Shown: piece after piece, positions 1 to 56,605 of the stretch
Position numbering within the stretch: the first letter of the stretch is position 1
Layout of the letters: each line of letters starts with the position of its first letter
DNA from: Eublepharis macularius
Lineage: Eukaryota > Chordata > Lepidosauria > Squamata > Eublepharidae
Assembly: GCF_028583425.1 (NCBI RefSeq)
Contig: NC_072791.1
Location: 196,950,311 to 197,014,310, forward strand
DNA length: 64,000 nucleotides
Direction: 5' to 3'
Made by a program: the position numbers and the translations under genes
The notes under the pieces: generated by a model
What the model saw: only the letters and a program-made list of their open reading frames with translations
Database searches by the model: none
What the model was told of the DNA's origin: nothing

Positions 1-130
1 GGCATCCTGGTCTTGCAGCTGTAATGGAGAGCCAAGCTGTAAAACCAGGACGCCTACACTTCCCATCAAAACTTGAGGTAAGCGGACAAGTGTCCAACCT
101 GTGTCAGGCGTCACTTGTAGCTTGGCTCTC
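1..130. mobile_element. MITE, right part, cut by window start
   Basis: This matches the right two thirds of the MITE at 54669-54875: both carry the phrase around TCCTGGTCTTGCAGCTG and end in a terminus reading CACTTGTAGCTTGG. The reverse complement of the end here begins GAGAGCCAAGCTACAAGTGA. The left terminus lies outside the window, so the target duplication cannot be tested. A 61-codon frame across it is not credible as a gene. Confidence 0.6.
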
Positions 131-1256
131 AGGCAAAAGCAAAAACGAGGTAGAACCTGGGCACTGTTTACTGCAGCTCAGGACAGCTGCTGTTCCATCT
201 TCTGGATGAAGAGGCAGGTTCCCTATTGCCTAAAAATCTGCAACGTCAGGCAGTCTTCATAAACTGCAATAGTCAGAAAAGAACTCACATAGAATGTCAA
301 CAGCTTTTAATTGTTAAAAAAAATTAGGAAGAAACAGTACATGGAGATAAACAGTAAAAAAAATAGCTCTGAAGACACAAATCACTCCTGTAAATGCACA
401 TGGTTGTTCATTATCTTGCAACTTGTTGTTCCAGTACATCATTGAAACTTGTGAATTTAATTAGCTTGAGAGGCATCCGTCTCCCTTCTAAGCACTGTAC
501 AAAGCTAGTCTTGACATTAAAGCAACATCCCATGTCCTTCCAGACAAATCAGATTTAGGAGGAGGTCTGATCTGTTCCCAGTAGGACAGAATACACATTC
601 TAAGAGCCACAAGAACACACAAATTCAAGATCCACTACCTCAACTTTACCAAAAGACCCTTAAAAATGTTGTGCAGGGATGCTTGAAAGGTAAAGCAGTG
701 TCTTTATAGCCTTAATTAATTCCTAGGCTTCATTCCAAAACCCTGAGACATGTCTAGAAAATATGTAAAAACTCTTTTTCCCTTGATAGCTAATGCTGGG
801 TTATAAACTAAGTCTTACGTAAAAGGCGGTCATTTTATGAAACACATTTCCACCTTTAGTAGCTATTTCCCTAAAAAGGTATGCTGCAGCAGTGACACGT
901 ACCTCCCTCTTTCTCCTACTTTACAACAAGCCAAGCAGTTCAGATGGGGAAGAGGAAAGATACAGGTAAGCCATTCAAATGAGTCGGAGAAGACAAGCTG
1001 CTGGCAAACAGTATTAACATGTCTGATACATCGTGCTCAGAGCAAACACAATGACCAAAGCAAACACCCTTCTATCATCCCAAGAAGGAGCACGTGGACT
1101 AAGCCCTCATCATCCAATATCTTTCAAGCATGCAGCAACATGATGAAAGAGAGGGTGGAACAATACAAGAAGTCATCTGCAATTATAAGGCAAAAATTTA
1201 ACCATGGTTCACAGTTCCCCTAAGAACACAGACAACTGTAGTGCTGCTGGTCATAG
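131..1256. other. STK39 intron 1, no feature recognised
   Basis: AT-rich unique-looking sequence. A 128-codon frame at 837-1223 has no recognisable domain and is taken as chance. Confidence 0.5.
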
Positions 1257-2345: not shown

Positions 2346-3799
2346 TGGAAAGAGAAACAGGAGGTTCAGAAACTTGGCTGCTGGGCAGAAAGGAAAACCA
2401 GGGATGCTGACCAAATCACAAAACAGCTAAAGAAAATGGGATAAATGTACGCTGCATGCCGAAAAGAAAGGCACTTGACACATCAGTCTGAACCAACCAA
2501 CCCACCAGTTTACTCAACTGTCACAAGTGAAGGACCCTTTACCATCAATGCCATCTTCAGCAGATTTTTTTTAAAAAAACTTTGAGCAATATATGAAGCA
2601 CAGCATTAAAGAAAAGTCAAATGAAAAGTCTAGAGCAAATTTCTTGTTTCACTATTGAATTGTTTCACTTTTACAGAGGCAATTAAGACTTCTGATTTTT
2701 TATACTGTGCATCCCACACATTAATGGATTATTAAGATTTCAATACTTAACGGTTCTAGCTAACTTCCAAAAGAAGCAGCCCCATTCTAAGTCTTGCATT
2801 CATATCCCACATGGCAGAAAACAAGATTTCAGTGTATCTCAGCTTTCATTCCCTCCCCACTTCTATCAGCAATCAGCATTTCTGCTTCCTGTATTGCCCC
2901 TCACATTTTATTATTTGTTCCCTACGAGCTTCTTCTGCAATATTTTTAAGCAAGCATAGATAGTCACAGCACCATAATAAGTCTACTTCCTGGTAGTTCC
3001 AATATCCTCAGGGTGCAGGAGGCCAACAGACTCTTAACAATCACATCCATCAGAAATAATTCTTATACAGCAGGATGAAAAACACTGACTGCAAAAAGAA
3101 GACACTTGTAAATGAAGTATGGAAGGATACACCAACCTAGCAAACATTAATAGCCCACCTGTCTGTACAAAGCCAGTACTCAGGGTACAGCAACAAAGAG
3201 AAACAAAAATGAGCCAACAGTGTCAACATTTTAAAGCCCCTTGAAGCAATCCTTAGCTAGTTTTTTTTTTTAAACTCAGTCCAAGAGCAGGGGGAGGGCT
3301 GCACTCCCAATGTAAAAAGGTCATGAGAAATAGAGAGAACAGTGAAACGAAAGCAAGATGGAATAAAATTGATATAAGACTAAACAAGGCAAGTCCACAA
3401 AAAATACAACTTCACAGAGAAGATGCAAAAGTTCTCCTGAGTTGTGAAGTTCATATATGCTGACCAAGAGAAGTCGAGTGTAAAGGTTACCTGGCTCGAG
3501 ATCAGAGTCTCTCTCACACTGCATTTTTAATGGTCAATGCAATTCATGACAGTTTCTGTAAAGGGAAGTGTGTTGGTTAGACTACTTAAAATGCCAGCAC
3601 AAGAAACGGCCACCCAAAAGGCAAGCTATCCACAAATGTTTCTTTTGAACACTTGCTTTTCTAGACTGCATGCTGTTTGGAGAAGAGACCCATCTACCTG
3701 CACTCAGTATTAACAAACAGAATAAAACTCTAGTTTCCGTGTTTCAGTCATAACTATTGCAGCAAAAACTCCATGAATTTAGTCCATTAGAAAGTTACA
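2346..3799. other. STK39 intron 1, no feature recognised
   Basis: AT-rich sequence with short homopolymer runs. No gene, RNA or clear repeat was recognised. Confidence 0.45.
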
Positions 3800-16045: not shown

Positions 16046-16229
16046 TGACAGAATCCACACGTCCTAGCATAGTGCTAAACTGTCGGAATGATAGTGTCTT
16101 CCTGGCGCGACTTCTGACATCATCGCACCACGATTCCGCTCTTGTGGCGCGATGACATCAGAAGTCACGCCAGGAAGACGCTATCATTCCGACAGTTTAG
16201 CACTATACCGGGACGTGTGGATTCAGCCA
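16046..16229. mobile_element. Palindromic MITE with Harbinger-like ends
   Basis: Long inverted arms (about 16050-16113 and 16165-16226) share TAGTGCTAAACTGTCGGAAT and TCTTCCTGGCG. The right terminus reversed reads GGCTGAATCCACACGTCC, which resembles the TIR of the autonomous Harbinger at 47757 (GGCCGATTCCACACTACC). The left tip is degenerate and no clean 3-bp duplication is visible. Confidence 0.6.
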
Positions 16230-47753: not shown

Positions 47754-47756
47754 TAA

Positions 47757-47774
47757 GGCCGATTCCACACTACC
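47757..47774 (+). repeat. Harbinger left TIR
   Basis: GGCCGATTCCACACTACC, preceded by TAA (47754-47756). It is followed by about 395 bp to the transposase start, presumably holding its promoter. Confidence 0.92.
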
Positions 47775-48169
47775 TTAGCTCCCGCTTTTCTTGTGCACTG
47801 ATTGCTCCATCTGCTATTGCGCGTTCTTTGCTTGTTTGTTCACATCACCTTTAGAATAGCGCTTATCCTGCGCAATCCGTTGATCACATCCCCTTTCAAA
47901 AATACGGGTAAAGGGGCGGGACAAAACCAAAAGGCCCGGGTTATTTTTTTTTTTTTAAAAAAGGCAAATTTGACGCTATATCGACGTGTAATTATCTTGA
48001 AACAACGAATCCGCGTTCCCTTCCTTCCCTGTCATTGGTCAGTTTTCGGACCAGCCTCTTAAAAGGTTATTGGATCCCCGTGGAGGCGCCAAAATTTGAA
48101 CAGCTTTAAAATTGGACTGATAGTCATTCCTGTCTCTGTGGGAGTTACAGGTGACTTGGAGAGGGTAGG

Positions 48170-49760
48170 ATGGCACCCCGGGAAACGATCATTTTTCTGA
48201 TGGCTCATGTCCTTCTGATTATGCTCCGCTGCTCGACATTCATGTGCCTTTCCTATAAAAGGTACATCTGCAGGAGGAGACGTGCGGCTGCCAGATTGCT
48301 ATTTTTCAGAAACCGGCACTCCGCTTACCGCCGCTACCTTCGTGCACCACCTAGAAACAGGTTTCGGCGATGGTTTGCCTTGGCAGAACTTGAAGAGCCA
48401 CGGGAGCACTGGGTTTACCCACGAAGCCTCCACTGGTGGGATGCCATCGTTTTGGGCTACTGGGATGATCATTGTTGGATGGAGCGTTTCCGAATGTCCA
48501 AGCAAACATTTCTTGAGTTGGTGGAGGCTCTACGGCCACGTCTCGAACGTCAAACCACCACCATGCGTGTGCCATTATCCGTGGAGAGGAGAGTCGCCGT
48601 AGCGGTGTGGTACCTCGCCAACGGGTCAAGCTATCAGGTGGCGAGCGACTTGTTTGGCATCGGACGGTCCACGGTCGCATCCTCGGTAATAGAGTTCTGC
48701 TTTGCTGTGGAACTAGAACTTCTCTCGAAAACAATATGCATTGGTCCCGACGTTGGAAAGGTAGGTTGCACTGTGGAAAATTTTTTTTTTTTGTAATGTG
48801 ATGTCGTCCTTCCGACTTATCATTGTGCCAAAATCATATCAGTTGCTTTTATTTGACCATCCAAAAAATGTCTAGGTTCTGACTGGACAACTAGGAATCT
48901 CACACTTGCGCATTGATGTGCCTTACGCTGACAGATGCCCGTGAGCGTGGATATAATCTTGAATAACAATCACCTAAACTTCTGTGAGTGCTGTTTGAGT
49001 AACCCCAAAACATGTCTGATTAATTTATTTTCCTTTTTCGAAACAGATAATGGATGGCTTCGATCGCCTTGGATTTCCGCACTGCATAGGCGCTATAGAT
49101 GGCACCCACATTCCCATTTGCGCTCCGGGGGGAAGGCCAGATCAATATGGGAATCGGAAGAACTATTCATCCATTCTTCTTCAAGGAACTGTAGACTCAT
49201 CAGGACGCTTCATCGACGTGGAGGTAGGGTGGAGTGGGAAAAATCATGATGCCTTTGTCTTTACCCACTCCGCCCTCTGTATTGCCATGGATGCCGGCTC
49301 CCTGGTTCCTGGGAACCCTTGCCTGGATTTGGATGGTGTGGTGGTTCCACCGATCATCATTGCGGATGGTGCCTACCCCTTGCGTCCCTGGCTGATGAAG
49401 CCATACGGCCGGACAGCAGAAGCGGGACATCACCGAGACTTTGATAGGAGACTTTGCAGGGCTCGCAACAAGGTGGAATGTTGTTTTGGTCGTTATAAGG
49501 GGAGATGGCGTTGTTTGTCCAGGCGTCTGCAGGTCAGAGAACAAAATGTGGTCTCTGTTGTCACTGCTTGTGCTGTCCTACATAACTTGTGTGAGGAAAG
49601 GGGTCATCCGGTGTTGGGTGACCTGGAATCACCAGAACCCATTCGCATACAGGCTGATGAGGATGATGACATGGCCACAAATGGTGAGAATCTCGCAGCA
49701 GGAAAGGTAGTGCGGGAGGCCTTGGCAAGGTTCATGGCCGCCGCAGGATCAAGAGAGTAG
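48170..49760 (+). CDS. Harbinger DDE transposase (HARBI1-like), two exons
   Basis: Exons 48170-48760 and 49047-49760 join in phase 0 across a GTAGGT donor and a TTCGAAACAG acceptor, giving 434 aa. The N-terminus has an odd hydrophobic stretch (residues about 6-28) before a basic RRRR cluster that could act as a nuclear signal. A downstream start cannot be excluded. A helix-turn-helix follows (ANGSSYQVASDLFGIGRSTV, about 149-168). The DDE_Tnp_4 core has Asp215 in GAIDGTHIP, Asp304 in IIADGAYPL and Glu341 in RNKVECCFGRYKGRW, so the catalytic triad is complete. It also has the family's late AVLHN motif. The product would cut the element at its TIRs. AATAAA follows at 49866. No stop or frameshift is seen. 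Confidence 0.92.
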
Positions 49761-50561
49761 AGCTTACCATGCCACCAATGGATGTTTCAGAAATCCGATT
49801 GTGGTGGTCCTTTAAACGATTTTTTATTATTATCCTGTCACGAGCCCTTGCTGTGTTGGCTCAAAAATAAACCAAAAATATGTTTTTGGATCTCATTGTT
49901 GAACTGTTTTCTTTCTCCTGATCTAAAATAAAAAAATACACATCATCACAAGACCAGTGAACAATCAATAAATAAAACAAATCAGAAAACCATTATATTC
50001 CTCTTGCAAACAATTTAGTGCTCCACACATTGCCCTTTCCATTTTTAAAAAAAATATTGCAATCTTGCCCAGTCGATGTTGTTGTTCGTGGAGGTGCATC
50101 CTGGAGATCATGGACACTCAAAATCACACTCACCGGCACACAGATGGCCCTGTCTCTGAACAACCAATTCTGCTCCGGAATGTGCAGAGTGGACTCATAC
50201 ACAGCTAATCTGTTCACCCCGCGTTGGTTTAAGTCCTTCCCAGTGATGGTCTACAGGCTATTGTGTGGTCATTTCTCAGGGAACCTTACAAGGGTTATCA
50301 CCCAACCCTCACGTCACTCATTAATATGTTAAAAAAAAAATTCTTATCACTTGACACTGTCATTCCCATTGTCCACTTAATGCTTTCGTGGGTACAGCCG
50401 GGAAGCAAAGAGCGCGGGGTGGACACGGGTCCATTTAATAAAAAAAACGCCTCTAAGCCTCCGTCGTTAAGATTCTCCCGCGCAAATAACGGGCGCGTGT
50501 AGCCGCCGATCATGCGCGTTGAAGATTCATTACTGTGTCGACATACCGTCTCATTGAAATC

Positions 50562-53199
50562 ATGGCTTCAGGCGGGAAAGGTGTCTTTTGGAGGGACGAC
50601 GAGGTCCGTGCCCTGCTTAACCTGGTGCTCAGCTCGGGAAAGGCAGGAATCCTCATGAAGAGCACCCACCTTCCCAACAGGCAGCACTTCAGTCGGGTAG
50701 CCACTCGTATGCGTGAGGCCGGCTTTGAGAGGAACACCGAACAATGCCGGTCCAAGTTTAAGCGCGTCAAGGGGGCTTTCTACGATGCCTTGGAGTCCTG
50801 GCAAGGGATTCCAAGGCAGAGTGGGAAGCCCCCCTTTTTTGCCGAAATGATGAGGCTCTGGGAGGCAGCAGGGAAACCCAGCTGGAGGAACCGATATCAT
50901 GGTGGTGAGTTGAGGTCTCGATGATAAAATTATGCCTATGACAATTATGCTTGTGTTTTGATTTTGAATTTTTTTCAAGGACATTGAGCTGAGGAATTGG
51001 TGAGTGGTGGTCCAAAAACCGCAGATCTTGGACATTGTTCACTGCTGTGCCTGACCACCCTAGAAGCGGGTGTATGCTTGTGCTTTTTTAACAATACCGA
51101 ACCCTGTTTGAATGGCCAAACCGCCCCATGATAGCTCCCCATGGACAGGATGTTCAAGCCAAATTTGTTTCTCAAAACATCGATACTGTAGGACAATAGA
51201 ATTCACATTTGCAGACCACTCCACATAACCTCATGCATGCGTGTATTGGGGAAAAGCATTTGCTGATGTGTCAGTAAAGTTTTGATAGTATGATTACAAG
51301 GTTTTCATAGAGGCCATTTTATAAAAAAAGATATTTTCCTGATTTCCACAGCTGCTCTTAGGAGGAGAGATGAGCCGATGAGTCAACCTGAGGAGCCAGA
51401 GGGGGAAGCCTCCGATGAGATGGAGCACGCCAGTGCGGCAGGCTCCTCCCCTGTGAGCAACGTGGTGCACCAGGAGTTGGCACATGCAGGTGGGTGTCAT
51501 GAGGAGTATCATTGCATTATGCAGCATCTAAATAGCCATTCCCCTCCACCCACTTTGGGTGATGCCATCCAAGTGTCAAGAACATTCTGCGCCAAAGGCT
51601 GCCCTGGCATGATGTCAGGTGGCAGATTCTTTCAGTTTTGCATTCTCCACAGACCAACATCACCTGCAACGTGACCATTTTCCAATTTAAAGGAAAGTTT
51701 AGAGCAGACATGAGTTATCGAAAAGGTGACATCTTAGTGGTCTGCGGGCCAAGCTACACATGACGAATGACACTTGAATGGCAAGTGTATTTCTCCCTGT
51801 TCACTTGCCCTCCACTCAAACCACTCGCCATTCAAGTGTCATTCGTCATGTGTAGCTTGGCCCTGTGAAGCAACCTCATCCAAAGCATCACAGCACCGTG
51901 GTCCAAACAAGTGCTTACCGTCCACCATTCATAGATTCAAAAGACTGTTTCTTACAGTAAACATTGGTGTGACCACATTTTCCTGCACCGTCAAGACCGA
52001 GAATGTTTAAGGATGGCCCAAGTTTTCTCAAATCGTACTTCTCATAGTTAGATGCATGGTGTGCCAAAAAGATAAGGGCATGATATTGTAGTTTACAGAG
52101 GTGTTAATCTACTCTGCCATAACCTCTCCAGCTCAATATCAGAGTTTTTTCTCTTTTTACCACCATGCAACAAACTAAGAGAATTGTGATTCTCGAATGT
52201 GCACTCCACAATTTTATCACTTTGAACCCAAGGGCGCTTCCAGGATAAATGTTTATTGCTCCCAGGGTTAAACACCGCAAAATCATGTGGATTTCACCGA
52301 TTTGTGAATCAGGAAACTTTTGTCATTGCTGTGATAATGGAAATTGACTGTTTGTCCATCCAAATGCAACTGTAAACGCAATTTGAACGGCAGCATTGGA
52401 TCTCTTCACAGGAATCCAAACGCTGGCATTTGAATTCACAGGTTTTTTTCCCCCGGGCGCCCCTTCCTGGCACACACACACTGATGATATCTTGCTCTAT
52501 GTAGATCACCTTCAAATTAATCCCTCCTGTTTAAATTTTTTTCTCTAACCACGAAGGAGCCTCTCCAGACCTATATGGTCACCTATCCATACATGGATTA
52601 TCTCAAAATCTTAAACTGGTTTCAGACCCTCTGCGTTAGAAACATGCATGGCAACACTGGAGTGCGTGTCTCAAACTGTGTTCTCATATCTTGACTCACT
52701 TGAACCTTAATACAGAATTTTCTTTTAAATTTGGAAAACAATGTTTCATTTCTGATTGGCCATCAAGATGATGGTTAGATAACACCCTTAAAAATGATAT
52801 GTTTTTCTATTGTGACAGAGGAGGTTGGGGATCGTCCGGGTACATCGGATTCAACTCAAGCGGCTCCATCCACCAGTACAGCGCCAGAGACCGCCCCCCG
52901 CCGCCAGGGAAGAACTCTTGATGACCTATTTGCCTTGGTGGAGAGCATGGATGGGCGCACCTCTGCATCACGTGGGTTCAACTCTATAAATGTGCTTTGG
53001 AGAGCAGCCACAGTAAACAATGCAACCGCCTAAAAAATTCTTGTTCTGTTTAGTCAACAGCATCCAGAGACGTATGGCCACATACGAGGGTCGTATGATG
53101 CGCTTTGGCCGGAGGCTGGACAACATCGAAAGGAGGCAACGGGAGATGGAAGAATCCAGCTTGTCAGCCAGGGAAGCTCATGGCCAACAAAATCAGTAA
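50562..53199 (+). CDS. Myb/SANT-like protein 1 of the Harbinger, four exons
   Basis: Exons 50562-50904, 51352-51489, 52819-52971 and 53054-53199 join in frame to 259 aa plus stop. Every junction is GT-AG and every intron is phase 1. The start was placed at ATCATGG (50562); an in-frame ATG at 50535 is also possible. Residues about 8-95 form a trihelix-type Myb/SANT domain (FWRDDEVRALLNLV, HFSRVATRMREAGF, TEQCRSKFKRVKGAFYDAL). The middle is acidic and Ser/Pro-rich. The last exon is Arg/Glu-rich and probably helical (RMMRFGRRLDNIERRQRE). In related Harbingers such a partner binds the transposase and TIR DNA. A MITE sits in intron 2 and AATAAA at 53258. The exon model is mine and untested by RNA. 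Confidence 0.8.
51746..51863. mobile_element. Palindromic MITE, 118 bp, nested in Harbinger intron
   Basis: Arms GGGCCAAGCTACACATGACG and its perfect mirror extend about 40 bp each way, including GACACTTGAATGGC. It lies in intron 2 of Myb-like gene 1. Duplication unclear (TGC/TGT). Confidence 0.85.
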
Positions 53200-53437
53200 T
53201 TGTTGCCCTGGCATGAGGCATCAATCTTTCCCACCCCTTGAGTTTCTCTTTAGTTTCAATAAATCAAGAACTGTTAACGTTACCATTTGTCCCCTTGTTT
53301 ATTGATGTCTTGGCCGTCAGGAGTAAAACAAGTAGTGGCATTGAAAAACACTCCAATGTAATACAAACAACAGTGTAACAGTGAAAATGGGGAAACGGGA
53401 CCGTTAATTCAAACGGAAACATCTTAGTCCAGTAATG

Positions 53438-55780
53438 CTAAAGAGTCAGCCTTTCACGAGCCCTTCCAACGCATGCACGTTTTGCCGTGGCAGACCTAGG
53501 TGGGATGTTTTCTGAGTTGCTGTCACCCTTTTCACAAGCATTTGCTGACCTTCCCCGGTGCTGACTCACCAACATTTCCCCAAGTGTTTGGAGAGTGGTT
53601 ACTGCAGATTCCATTACATGCAGATTCTGCATCCACACATCCCTAAAATCATTTCTTTCCTTCCTGGTCTCCTCTAGGAACTCGACTTGCAACCTCCTTT
53701 CTTCTTCATGCCATTTGTTGCTATCCTTGCGGTCTATGCGCCATTCATTGATCTGTGCCTTGTGCTCTTCCCCTGACTGACTCATCATCTTGTCCGCCAC
53801 AGAAAACAGGCCAGCATTTCTTCTTCTTCTGGATCTAATGGCTGATAGGCGTGTGCCAGGTGATAGCTCCGCCACTGATTTCAAAGGTGATTCTGTGAAT
53901 TGATAAAAAGCCAAAAAAACATCAAAAAACAAACATAATCCAGAGCATGACATTGACTTTTCTGCACAGTTATTGTCCCTTGAGTGATCAATCAACAGAA
54001 TCTCGTGTGCAGTCCCATGCTGAGGATTTTTTTTTGGTCTCCTGCTGAGAATCAACACTCCTTGCCATGTTTAACAGACATGGTTTTTACATCTATGCCC
54101 TGGGGGGAGAAAAAACCTGTACAGTTGACGTTTTTTGCCTGATGTTACCCAAGGATTCAATCAATGTGAAGCTGATGTGAGGGTGCTGTTCATTTGGTCC
54201 ATAGTTCCGGCCAAGAAACTTTGGTGACTTCCCTTTTGACTCAAGCCAAAATTGGTACCAAGGGGACCCACCACCCCCCAAAACACACAATGACGTTAAC
54301 ATGACACTGCTGCCGGGGTTACATATCACGTCGCCAAGTTTAATTTAGCTTTATCTGCAGAAACAAATTTGAAAATTTGGTGAACAAACTCTTACTGATG
54401 GTAAACCATAGAGATGCTATGCGATTGCTAGCCCTTTATTTCGTTACCGAGAAAACATACCTTTGCTGCTGCCAAGACCAGATGTGCTGGAGCTGTTGTT
54501 GCTAATTGTTTCCTCTTGACCGTCAGGACACGGATCATCAGACTCTAGAAATAAAGGAGAGGTTTTCACAGATTTAATTGTGAGTTAAGTGGGTGGATTT
54601 GATGTCCTGGCATAAAACCAATTCCTGGCAGGATACAGAAGTTCACACAAACACAGGAAGGAAGTGGCTTAGGGTGAAGCTGCAAGCGACGCCTGACACA
54701 GGGCGGACACTTGTCCGCTTCCCTCAATTTCTGATGGGAACTGTAGGTATCCTGGTCTTGCAGCTGCATTGGAGAGACAAGCGCTAAATCAAGGAAGCCC
54801 ACTTCTCCCATCAAAAGTTTAGCAAGGCTAACAAGTTTGCAACCTGTCAGGCATCACTTGTAGCTTGGGTCTCAGGCTCTGCAATTTTCACAAATGAAAC
54901 AAAGCACAGTTTCTCAAACATTGAAAACATAACGTGTTTTCCTGAACACGTGGTCCAAACATGGATCCAATTGTGTTGAAGTGGTGTCCCATATCCTCAC
55001 GATTCTAGACTCCAGCTGTCTTTTCACCACGATAGATCAAAGAACACCTGCAACTAGATATAACTAATCAAGGTTAAAGGGTTAATCACTGCAATATATG
55101 GATGTTTTCCTATGAAACTCATCAAACTCACCTTTGTCTTCAAGGCCATCCACAGTGGCATCAGTGTCAATCTCTGCCTCAACCTCAGGTACATTCTCTC
55201 TCACACCTGTGTCAATTGAAAGAATGTCATGATATTACTTCATGCGTCTCTATAATGAGCACTTTTCAAACCTCCACAGTAAAAGTGGTTTTCACTCACC
55301 CACTTGGCATGGAGTGGAGCTTCTAATCTGTCCATGATCTATGGTGAAGAGGTCGTGCGAAAAAAGCTCCTCCGAGCCATCAGACACTGGACACGGGTCT
55401 CTCAATTGCCGCCCCAGGGACACAACGCCAAGACTTCTTGACACTCGTTTTGGTTTCACGCTTGCATCCCCCCGGAGAATGCTGTCAAGCTCCCTGAAAT
55501 ACGGGCAGGTAATGGGAGCATTTCCAGAGGTTGAATTGTGCGCCACTACCTTCTTGTAATCCAGTCTCATCGTTTTTGTTTTTGACCTGCACTCCATAGC
55601 TGTCCTTTTATGTCCCCGAAGGGCCATCTGGGCTGCAATGCGCTCGAAATAATCGATATTTCTATAGGAACTCTTCAGTGCTTCCTGTATTTTTTCCTCC
55701 CCCCAGAAGGAGAGGAGATCCAATATTTCCCTCTCCCTCCAAGCAATTCCACGGGAGGCGGCATGCCTATGTTCGCTCAT
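53438..55780 (-). CDS. Myb/SANT-like protein 2 of the Harbinger, four exons
   Basis: Minus-strand exons 55300-55780, 55132-55206, 54461-54544 and 53438-53892 join in frame to 364 aa plus stop. All junctions are GT-AG and all introns phase 1, as in the other Myb gene. Residues about 12-80 form a SANT domain of the type in vertebrate ZSCAN/MSANTD proteins (AWREREILDLLSFWGEE, YFERIAAQMALRGHKRT, ECRSKTKTMRLDYKK). An acidic Ser-rich linker spans exons 2-3. The last exon gives a long charged helical region (about 240-325: EWRIDRKDSNKWHEEERRL, LQTLGEMLVSQHR), probably a coiled coil for multimerisation, and a basic tail. It differs from Myb-like protein 1 in sequence and charge, so it is not a simple duplicate. 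Its 3' end converges on that of protein 1 within 240 bp. A MITE lies in its intron 2. Confidence 0.8.
54669..54875. mobile_element. MITE, about 205 bp, nested in Harbinger intron
   Basis: The left arm GAAGCTGCAAGCGACGCCTG and right arm CAGGCATCACTTGTAGCTT are inverted. The core is shared with the copy at 1-130. Lies in intron 2 of Myb-like gene 2. Confidence 0.75.
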
Positions 55781-56587
55781 CTCGACAATTTTGAAAATAC
55801 CTGACCTGAACTCCTGAGATCTCGTTCTAAGTGCTAGAACAGATTTATAGCTGAGGCTCCGTGCTCCGCTGCAGAATGTCTGTCAATAAAATGCTACCAC
55901 ATGCATTGGATCATGGGAAAGGATGGGAAAGTTTCCGCGGGAAGTAACGGTCAAGAAATGGCATGCCGCATGCGCAAGTTTGGACAGCAAGGATTGAATT
56001 AACGCCAATCCGAAACAGCGGTTCAATGGAACAACGACGACATTAGTGTTAATGTTAAAGGCATTCCAAGTGCACGTCAACGATGAACGCCAGTGAATGA
56101 AATCAACATGGGATGGGTGATCGGTCATGATGACCGGCCACATCATCCAAAGGCAGAGCTTGATTTTCTCTTTTGAAACTTGACCGCGGTGCCAAGTCCA
56201 GTGGCACAGGCCATTTCAAGCGTATCAAAAGCCATGAATGAGGTGTCACGAGGATGTCTAATAAACAGAGCTCATTGTTCCTCTGATATCGGAGGTCTGT
56301 CCGTTAAATTGATATGAGAACAATATGATGAGATGTCGACATATCGACACGGTAGTCTTTTATTTTTTAAAAAAGGGGTTGGAAAAAAGGCAGGGCAGGG
56401 AATTTGGGGGCGGATCAAGAGAGGGTGGGAAACCAAATGGGGCCGTTTATTCATAACAAGATAAACCGGAATGAAAGTGCAATGGGCTGTTGCGACGCGA
56501 TGCCGGTTTAATGACGTCATGGGAGATGAGTGTGTGAACCGATTAAAGTATGGCGCTGCAGAAGTGAAAAACTGCCGCAAGAAGAAC

Positions 56588-56605
56588 GGTAGTGTGGATT
56601 CGGCC
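56588..56605 (-). repeat. Harbinger right TIR
   Basis: Inverted partner of the left TIR with one difference, followed by TAA (56606-56608). About 800 bp lie between it and the start of the minus-strand Myb-like gene, with CpG-rich stretches that may be its promoter. Confidence 0.92.

What the first reader, a model, noticed from the sequence alone, without database searches (positions are those of the whole stretch)
47757..56605. Harbinger transposon with a transposase and two different Myb/SANT genes
Seen: 17/18 TIRs, a TAA duplication, a complete DDE triad, and three genes that stay open across eleven exon-intron borders checked by hand. Known: PIF/Harbinger elements typically encode one transposase and one Myb-like partner. 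Inference: the second, minus-strand SANT protein with a long coiled-coil tail adds a third component, perhaps a regulator, a second TIR/subterminal binder, or a scaffold. This is the strongest candidate for an undescribed mobile system in the window.
Basis: partly seen in the sequence, partly recalled or inferred. Interest (0 to 1): 0.88.

Follow-up and report, generated by a model that had tools for sequence, protein, structure and literature searches.

The report
Gecko Harbinger transposon with two Mybs
A recently active jumping gene of the leopard gecko carries not only its cutting enzyme but two different DNA-binding helper genes, and related families in the same genome carry the same three genes, whereas elements of this kind are usually described with only one such helper.

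Summary
47757-56605 is an intact PIF/Harbinger-type DNA transposon of the leopard gecko: 17/18 TIRs, TAA duplication, DDE transposase (434 aa), Myb1 (+, 259 aa), Myb2 (-, 364 aa), seven GT-AG introns. The host assembly holds 11 further end-to-end copies, 98.8-99.96% identical; all three genes are open in 12 of 12. Coding sequence is depleted of variants (20/3180 against 110/5669 sites); dN/dS against older copies is 0.24-0.50. The trio is not private to this family: 35 Myb1-Myb2 pairs lie within 15 kb outside it, 34 on opposite strands; transposase-Myb1 pairs are 33/33 same strand, transposase-Myb2 pairs 22/22 opposite strand. Order differs: T+ M1+ M2- here, T+ M2- M1+ in 14 of 15 other trios listed. 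The Mybs form separate clades. Capture in one copy and a nested element are refuted. Myb2's role is inference; I favour two trihelix adaptors serving one transposase. 58 of 98 transposase places showed no partner in capped lists, so universality is untested.

The parts
47757..56605 (.). whole element, 8849 bp, three-gene PIF/Harbinger-type transposon
   Evidence: TIRs, TSD, 11 other end-to-end copies
47754..47756 (.). left target-site duplication TAA
56606..56608 (.). right target-site duplication TAA
47757..47774 (+). left terminal inverted repeat
56588..56605 (-). right terminal inverted repeat
48170..48760 (+). transposase exon 1 (weak helix-turn-helix match, below the Pfam cut-off)
49047..49760 (+). 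transposase exon 2, DDE_Tnp_4 with D215, D304, E341 at 49098, 49365, 49476
50562..50904 (+). Myb1 exon 1, trihelix Myb/SANT domain PF13837
51352..51489 (+). Myb1 exon 2
52819..52971 (+). Myb1 exon 3
53054..53199 (+). Myb1 exon 4, helical tail (modelled on the relative P0030), stop
55300..55780 (-). Myb2 exon 1, trihelix Myb/SANT domain PF13837
55132..55206 (-). Myb2 exon 2
54461..54544 (-). Myb2 exon 3
53438..53892 (-). Myb2 exon 4, about 108-residue predicted helix, C-terminal motif and stop
51746..51863 (.). nested 118-bp palindromic repeat in Myb1 intron 2, not part of the transposon's own machinery
   Evidence: absent from the older C1 copies
54677..54877 (.). dispersed repeat in Myb2 intron 2
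   Evidence: 80-87% similar to window 1-134

Best explanation
This is an autonomous, very recently active PIF/Harbinger-type cut-and-paste transposon whose working gene set is three: a DDE transposase and two anciently diverged trihelix Myb/SANT proteins. Shown by sequence: three intact genes, TIRs and 3-bp duplications, 12 near-identical end-to-end copies, purifying selection on all three genes, and the same gene trio in other Harbinger families of this genome, mostly with the Myb order swapped. Inferred: both Mybs act as accessory DNA-binding subunits of transposition. In the likeliest version they bind terminal or subterminal DNA, associate through their C-terminal helices, and recruit and import one transposase; Myb2 may bind a different site from Myb1 or act as the scaffold.
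For: Copies and integrity. Selection: Tpase 8/1305, Myb1 6/780, Myb2 6/1095 variable sites against 110/5669 non-coding; dN/dS Tpase 0.24-0.39, Myb1 0.32-0.50, Myb2 0.29-0.36. Older copies with the same order. Another family (65% transposase identity), with transposase exon 2, Myb2 and Myb1 in order T+ M2- M1+: on L037. Genome-wide pairing. Separate Myb clades. Trihelix fold, nearest solved structure plant GT-1. Precedent that one Myb-like protein imports the transposase and binds the ends: passages of PMC9179366.
Against: No binding, interaction, expression or transposition data. Pair lists were capped at the best-scoring places: 58 of 98 transposase places showed neither Myb, 18 showed Myb1 only and 7 Myb2 only, and the query meant to fill the gap (P0008) did not complete. 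The reading frames of the other families were not checked for intactness. The structure models have low overall confidence (pTM 0.30 and 0.39). The dN/dS values use partly decayed copies: the C1:152.0 Mb transposase has a frame break, and F2.479 and F2.33 have 1 and 3 internal stops.
Confidence: 0.68

Rival explanations
1. Myb2 is a regulator carried by the element, not a part of the transposition machinery: a repressor of copy number, or an activator or anti-silencing factor of the element's promoters, while transposase plus Myb1 do the moving.
For: Myb2 is encoded on the opposite strand, has a long low-confidence, probably disordered middle, and related proteins exist in gecko genomes as what look like host genes (P0018-P0023), as expected of a transcription-factor-like protein.
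Against: Nothing here separates it from the accessory-subunit reading; the constraint on Myb2 is about as strong as on the transposase, which does not decide between them.
Confidence: 0.22
2. Myb2 was captured from a host gene by this copy or this family only.
For: Gecko proteins with a related Myb domain that look like host genes exist (P0018-P0023).
Against: 12 of 12 copies and older copies carry it; relatives sit beside transposases of other families at 16 of the 22 transposase-Myb2 pairs once the 5 window-family copies and 1 older copy are left out, and beside Myb1 in 35 pairs outside the window family; the host-like genes are only 39-40% identical.
Confidence: 0.03
3. The minus-strand gene belongs to a separate nested element.
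For: Two nested repeats do lie in introns.
Against: Same position in 12 of 12 copies with one outer pair of ends; same neighbourhood in other families.
Confidence: 0.01
4. Myb1 and Myb2 are recent duplicates within the element and redundant.
For: Both are PF13837 and align at 23% identity.
Against: They fall on the two sides of a split with 100/100 support, each side with several distinct sequences (4 Myb1-type, 14 Myb2-type rows).
Confidence: 0.06

Closest known systems
PIF/Harbinger elements with transposase plus one Myb/SANT protein (teleost families in PMC9179366, passages read; eukaryote survey PMC4482050, passages and section 8 read)
   Same: DDE_Tnp_4-type transposase, short TIRs starting with G, 3-bp duplication, Myb/SANT partner
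   Different: two anciently diverged Myb/SANT genes instead of one, the second on the opposite strand; duplications not restricted to TWA
NuwaI and NuwaII groups of the PHIS superfamily (PMC4482050, passages and section 8)
   Same: transposase plus Myb/SANT gene; TIRs starting GG as in most NuwaII; some duplications here are CWG as in NuwaI
   Different: duplications here are mixed (3 of 10 TWA, 2 of 10 CWG); two Myb genes; transposase not tested against Nuwa references
Harbinger-related PHISTA elements of rust fungi with three proteins (PMC12730594, passages read)
   Same: a PHIS element with a third protein
   Different: there a TET/JBP dioxygenase and a protein without Myb/SANT domain; here two Myb/SANT proteins
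Harbinger-Snek of sea kraits (PMC8437027, passages read)
   Same: recent burst of a Harbinger in a squamate, with variants that have lost parts
   Different: two proteins only, reported as horizontally acquired

Membership tests
PIF/Harbinger (PHIS superfamily) | DDE transposase of the DDE_Tnp_4 / HARBI1 kind | tested here: met
   PF13359 E 2.6e-31; triad; HARBI1-named relatives
PIF/Harbinger (PHIS superfamily) | short TIRs, 3-bp target-site duplication | tested here: met
   18-bp TIRs; 10 of 12 copies have a perfect 3-bp duplication, L010 does not match (TTG/CAG), L018 has lost its left end
PIF/Harbinger group in the strict sense | duplication is TWA (PMC4482050) | tested here: not met
   TAA, CTG, AAG, CAG, TTG, CTA, TAG, TTA, CAT, TTA: 3 of 10 are TWA, though 10 of 10 have A or T in the middle. 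I therefore file it under the superfamily, group unsettled
PIF/Harbinger (PHIS superfamily) | accessory Myb/SANT gene | tested here: met
   met twice: Myb1 E 1.1e-11, Myb2 E 1.3e-15 to PF13837
PIF/Harbinger (PHIS superfamily) | two genes, as most described autonomous members have | tested here: not met
   three conserved genes; usual rather than strictly defining, and this is the variant feature
NuwaI | duplication is CWG | tested here: not met
   2 of 10
ISL2EU | YqaJ nuclease as second gene | tested here: not met
   no such Pfam match in the three proteins
PIF/Harbinger (PHIS superfamily) | transposase and Myb bind each other and the ends | not testable with these tools
   needs biochemistry

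The most novel reading that the evidence does not exclude
Several Harbinger families of the leopard gecko share a three-protein transposition machine in which two different trihelix adaptors are both needed, for instance as a heteromer reading two sites or the two ends, and selection has kept the pair linked to the transposase through family divergence and a change of gene order.
Probability: 0.45. Interest if true: 0.78.

Novelty: new variant of a known kind. Interest (0 to 1): 0.63.

Why it matters
Harbinger elements are a standard example of a transposon that splits its work between a transposase and one Myb-like partner, and such pairs have been domesticated in hosts. A lineage that keeps two distinct Myb partners under selection, in more than one family and with shuffled order, offers 12 nearly identical natural copies with which to ask how import, end recognition and regulation are divided. 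It may also bear on where some Myb/SANT genes of geckos come from.

Tried and rejected
Rejected: host-gene capture in this copy, separate nested element, recent within-element duplication (see rivals).

Subterminal motif: TCGAC-type words near both ends and just before Myb1 are kept in two deletion derivatives of about 948 bp, but TCGAC, TCGACA and ATATCGAC are absent from the Myb2-Myb1 intergenic region of the other family; not used as evidence.

Gene numbers in NCBI names (P0036 and P0031 consecutive) were a lead only; the pairing was then seen directly in L037.

Foldseek gave no hit at E 0.001 or better for Myb2; the best were GT-1 (0.011), then Sap1. Myb1's model was not searched by fold. 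Three papers I wanted are not held (PMC3278475, 10.1093/molbev/msac173, PMC2290759), so anything about them is recalled. Ten paper searches showed no Harbinger with two Myb/SANT genes in the titles, abstract starts and passages that I saw; I opened 7 papers, none in full, and Repbase and closed papers could not be searched.

Left undone: genome searches with Myb2 P0008 (not completed) and with P0032 and P0006 (not asked), which would tell whether the transposase families near 66-69% identity to P0036 with 481- and 507-residue frames carry both Mybs.
Full report
WHAT IS THERE. The window encodes, at 47757-56605, an 8849-bp element with 18-bp terminal inverted repeats (17 of 18 identical) inside a TAA duplication. 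The flanks AGAC-TAA...TAA-GTCT make the target a near palindrome around TAA (pair I3). Recalled, not tested: the maize PIF target consensus has a similar CTTAG core. Spliced by enumeration of GT/AG sites in short stretches that I chose by eye, the transposase (48170-48760, 49047-49760; 434 aa) and Myb1 (50562-50904, 51352-51489, 52819-52971, 53054-53199; 259 aa) lie on the plus strand, and Myb2 (55780-55300, 55206-55132, 54544-54461, 53892-53438; 364 aa) on the minus strand. Other borders also give open frames (4 combinations in all for Myb2, 8 for Myb1); for Myb2 the chosen one equals an independent NCBI model exactly (P0001), and for Myb1 it has the same length as the relative P0030, 72% identical over 100% of the query. 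The window is from Eublepharis macularius judged by that identity; the assembly itself is unnamed.

DOMAINS. Transposase: DDE_Tnp_4 E 2.6e-31, triad D215/D304/E341. Myb1 and Myb2: Myb_DNA-bind_4 E 1.1e-11 and 1.3e-15. AlphaFold models (Myb2 = P0001 with 18 sequences; for Myb1 its 72% relative P0030 with 3 sequences) show an N-terminal helical domain, a low-confidence middle and one long C-terminal helix each: 225-332 in Myb2 and 194-253 in P0030; overall pTM only 0.30 and 0.39. The nearest solved structures are the plant GT-1 trihelix domain by sequence (E 2.3e-4 for Myb2, 0.0037 for Myb1) and by fold for Myb2 (E 0.011). A C-terminal motif (KR.CVGKAR.RLTL in the consensus) is recognisable in 10 of the 18 Myb2-type rows aligned; the other 8 are cut short there or diverged.

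COPIES. A search of the 2.24-Gb assembly with the left 744 bases scored 40 of 429 candidates, the window included. Of the 39 others I fetched 20, then one more (L036) and two short ones (L038, L039); 16 were not fetched. Eleven (L009-L019) run end to end, 98.8-99.96% identical, on C1, C4, C6, C7, C10, C13, C14 and C15; L018 lacks the first 5 bases. Ten of the 12 copies have perfect 3-bp duplications (TAA, CTG, AAG, CAG, TTG, CTA, TAG, TTA, CAT, TTA); L010 reads TTG/CAG and L018 has lost its outermost left bases. So the duplication is 3 bp with A or T in the middle, not strictly TWA. All three genes are open in 12 of 12 copies, and 84 of 84 introns keep GT-AG. Two copies differ by as little as one base, so the burst is very recent.

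SELECTION. Variable columns among the 12 copies: transposase 8/1305, Myb1 6/780, Myb2 6/1095, non-coding 110/5669; binomial p 3e-4, 0.02, 6e-4, all coding together 3e-7. Most of these variants come from one copy, L019. Against older copies (C1:152.0 Mb; two versions, F2.479 and F2.33, of one segmentally duplicated insertion on C1; C12:62.7 Mb) Nei-Gojobori dN/dS is 0.24-0.39 for transposase, 0.32-0.50 for Myb1, 0.29-0.36 for Myb2 (Myb2 not covered in C12:62.7, 236 of 365 Myb2 codons covered in F2.33). These numbers include neutral decay after insertion, so true constraint is probably stronger. The older copies carry the three genes in the same order with other repeats inserted. In C12:62.7 Mb homology stopped at element position 3711 in the 19.25 kb fetched, but one search lists Myb2 exons (93-94%) on the minus strand about 17-19 kb beyond that point, so Myb2 is probably not lost there; the stretch between was read only in part. 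A further copy, C28, was not fetched; searches list its left end and Myb2 about 13 kb apart on opposite strands.

OTHER FAMILIES. Protein searches of the assembly scored 98 transposase candidates of 2082 with P0036, 112 Myb2 candidates of 1963 with P0001 and 150 Myb1 candidates of 1816 with P0031. For the intersection I kept one row per copy: 98 of 167 transposase matches (exon-2 rows), 91 of 131 Myb2 matches, 150 of 150 Myb1 matches. Within 20 kb, 22 transposase-Myb2 pairs were found, all 22 on opposite strands with Myb2 downstream, against 0.16 expected for random places; 5 are window-family copies and 1 is an older copy of it. Within 15 kb, 33 transposase-Myb1 pairs, all 33 same strand and downstream (0.2 expected), and 35 Myb1-Myb2 pairs, 34 on opposite strands, one on the same strand 12.5 kb apart (0.18 expected); none of the 35 is from the window family, whose Myb1 did not reach the capped list. 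Random placement ignores clustering of repeats, but the orientation rule does not depend on it. In 26 pairs Myb2 lies before Myb1, head to head, 0.96-1.35 kb apart by match starts; in 8 the order is Myb1 then Myb2, tail to tail, 4.15-4.58 kb apart. Around transposases: T+ M2- M1+ 14, T+ M1+ M2- 1, T+ M1+ only 18, T+ M2- only 7, neither 58 of 98. The lists are capped by score, so absence from them is not absence from the element: the transposase-to-Myb1 distance is about 4.7-5.6 kb in 13 of 18 places where no Myb2 was listed, close to the 4.86-5.29 kb of 14 of 15 places where it was. Of 150 Myb1 places 35 had a listed Myb2 within 15 kb, and of 91 Myb2 places 42 had a listed Myb1 or transposase. 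One other element was read: L037, whose transposase is 65% identical (P0036), has exon 2 of the transposase, then Myb2 on the minus strand, then Myb1 on the plus strand; exon 1 was not found in the stretch, its ends were not identified and frames were not checked.

AGE OF THE TWO MYBS. A tree of 18 Myb domains splits 4 Myb1-type from 14 Myb2-type sequences with 100/100 support (rooted at the midpoint for drawing only); the profiles are related at 23% identity, E 7e-9. So the two are old paralogues or independent acquisitions of the same domain, not a recent duplication.

CIS SEQUENCES. Deletion derivatives keep both ends: L027 (1-752 and 8521-8849), L028 (1-804 and 8074-8849), one on C9 (1-602 and 8256-8849), L038 and L039 (1-368 and 8342-8849, about 948 bp). 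L038 and L039 share their flanks, so they may not be independent insertions.

HOW IT PROBABLY WORKS. Shown: gene set, integrity, copies, constraint, linkage. Established for relatives: the Myb-like protein interacts with the transposase, allows nuclear import and binds the ends (passage in PMC9179366). Inferred: here that task is shared by two trihelix proteins with helical tails. I put most weight on both being accessory subunits, less on Myb2 as a regulator.

COMPARISON. PMC4482050 (passages and section 8) says most candidate autonomous PIF/Harbinger, NuwaI and NuwaII elements have two ORFs; PMC9710019 (abstract) says all known PIF elements are marked by two genes; [quoted passage not shown] PMC12730594 (passages) reports three-protein relatives in fungi, without a Myb. 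My ten paper searches showed no Harbinger with two Myb/SANT genes in what I saw of them; Repbase was not searchable, so a description there is possible. Hence: new variant of a known kind.

Noticed in passing
51746-51863: A 118-bp almost perfect palindrome in Myb1 intron 2; the older C1 copies lack it (alignment breaks at element 3983/3988 and 4107), so it is a nested short element that hitch-hiked through the later burst.
   Followed up: partly
54677-54877 and 1-134: A dispersed repeat in Myb2 intron 2 with a second copy at the very start of the window, 80-87% similar.
   Followed up: no
16211-16228: A site matching the TIR with 3 mismatches on the minus strand, possibly an end of an old derivative.
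   Followed up: no
proteins P0018-P0023: Proteins of 374-544 aa from six gecko genera (named ZSCAN29-like, MSANTD7 or uncharacterized) carry a Myb2-type domain at 39-40% identity: a candidate host gene derived from this transposon lineage.
   Followed up: no
proteins P0025, P0026, P0029, P0058, P0068, P0069, P0073, P0076: Predicted squamate proteins that join RING or KRAB to a Myb2-type domain, and KRAB to a Harbinger transposase: possible repeated domestication of both partners.
   Followed up: no
L009-L019 flanks: Duplications of one family mix the TWA type of PIF/Harbinger and the CWG type of NuwaI; only the central A/T is constant in 10 of 10, so duplication sequence alone may not separate these groups.
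   Followed up: partly
L021-L025 with L029-L033: One old insertion of this family is present five times on C1 near both ends, with the same 8-base flanks in all five, pointing to segmental duplication.
   Followed up: no
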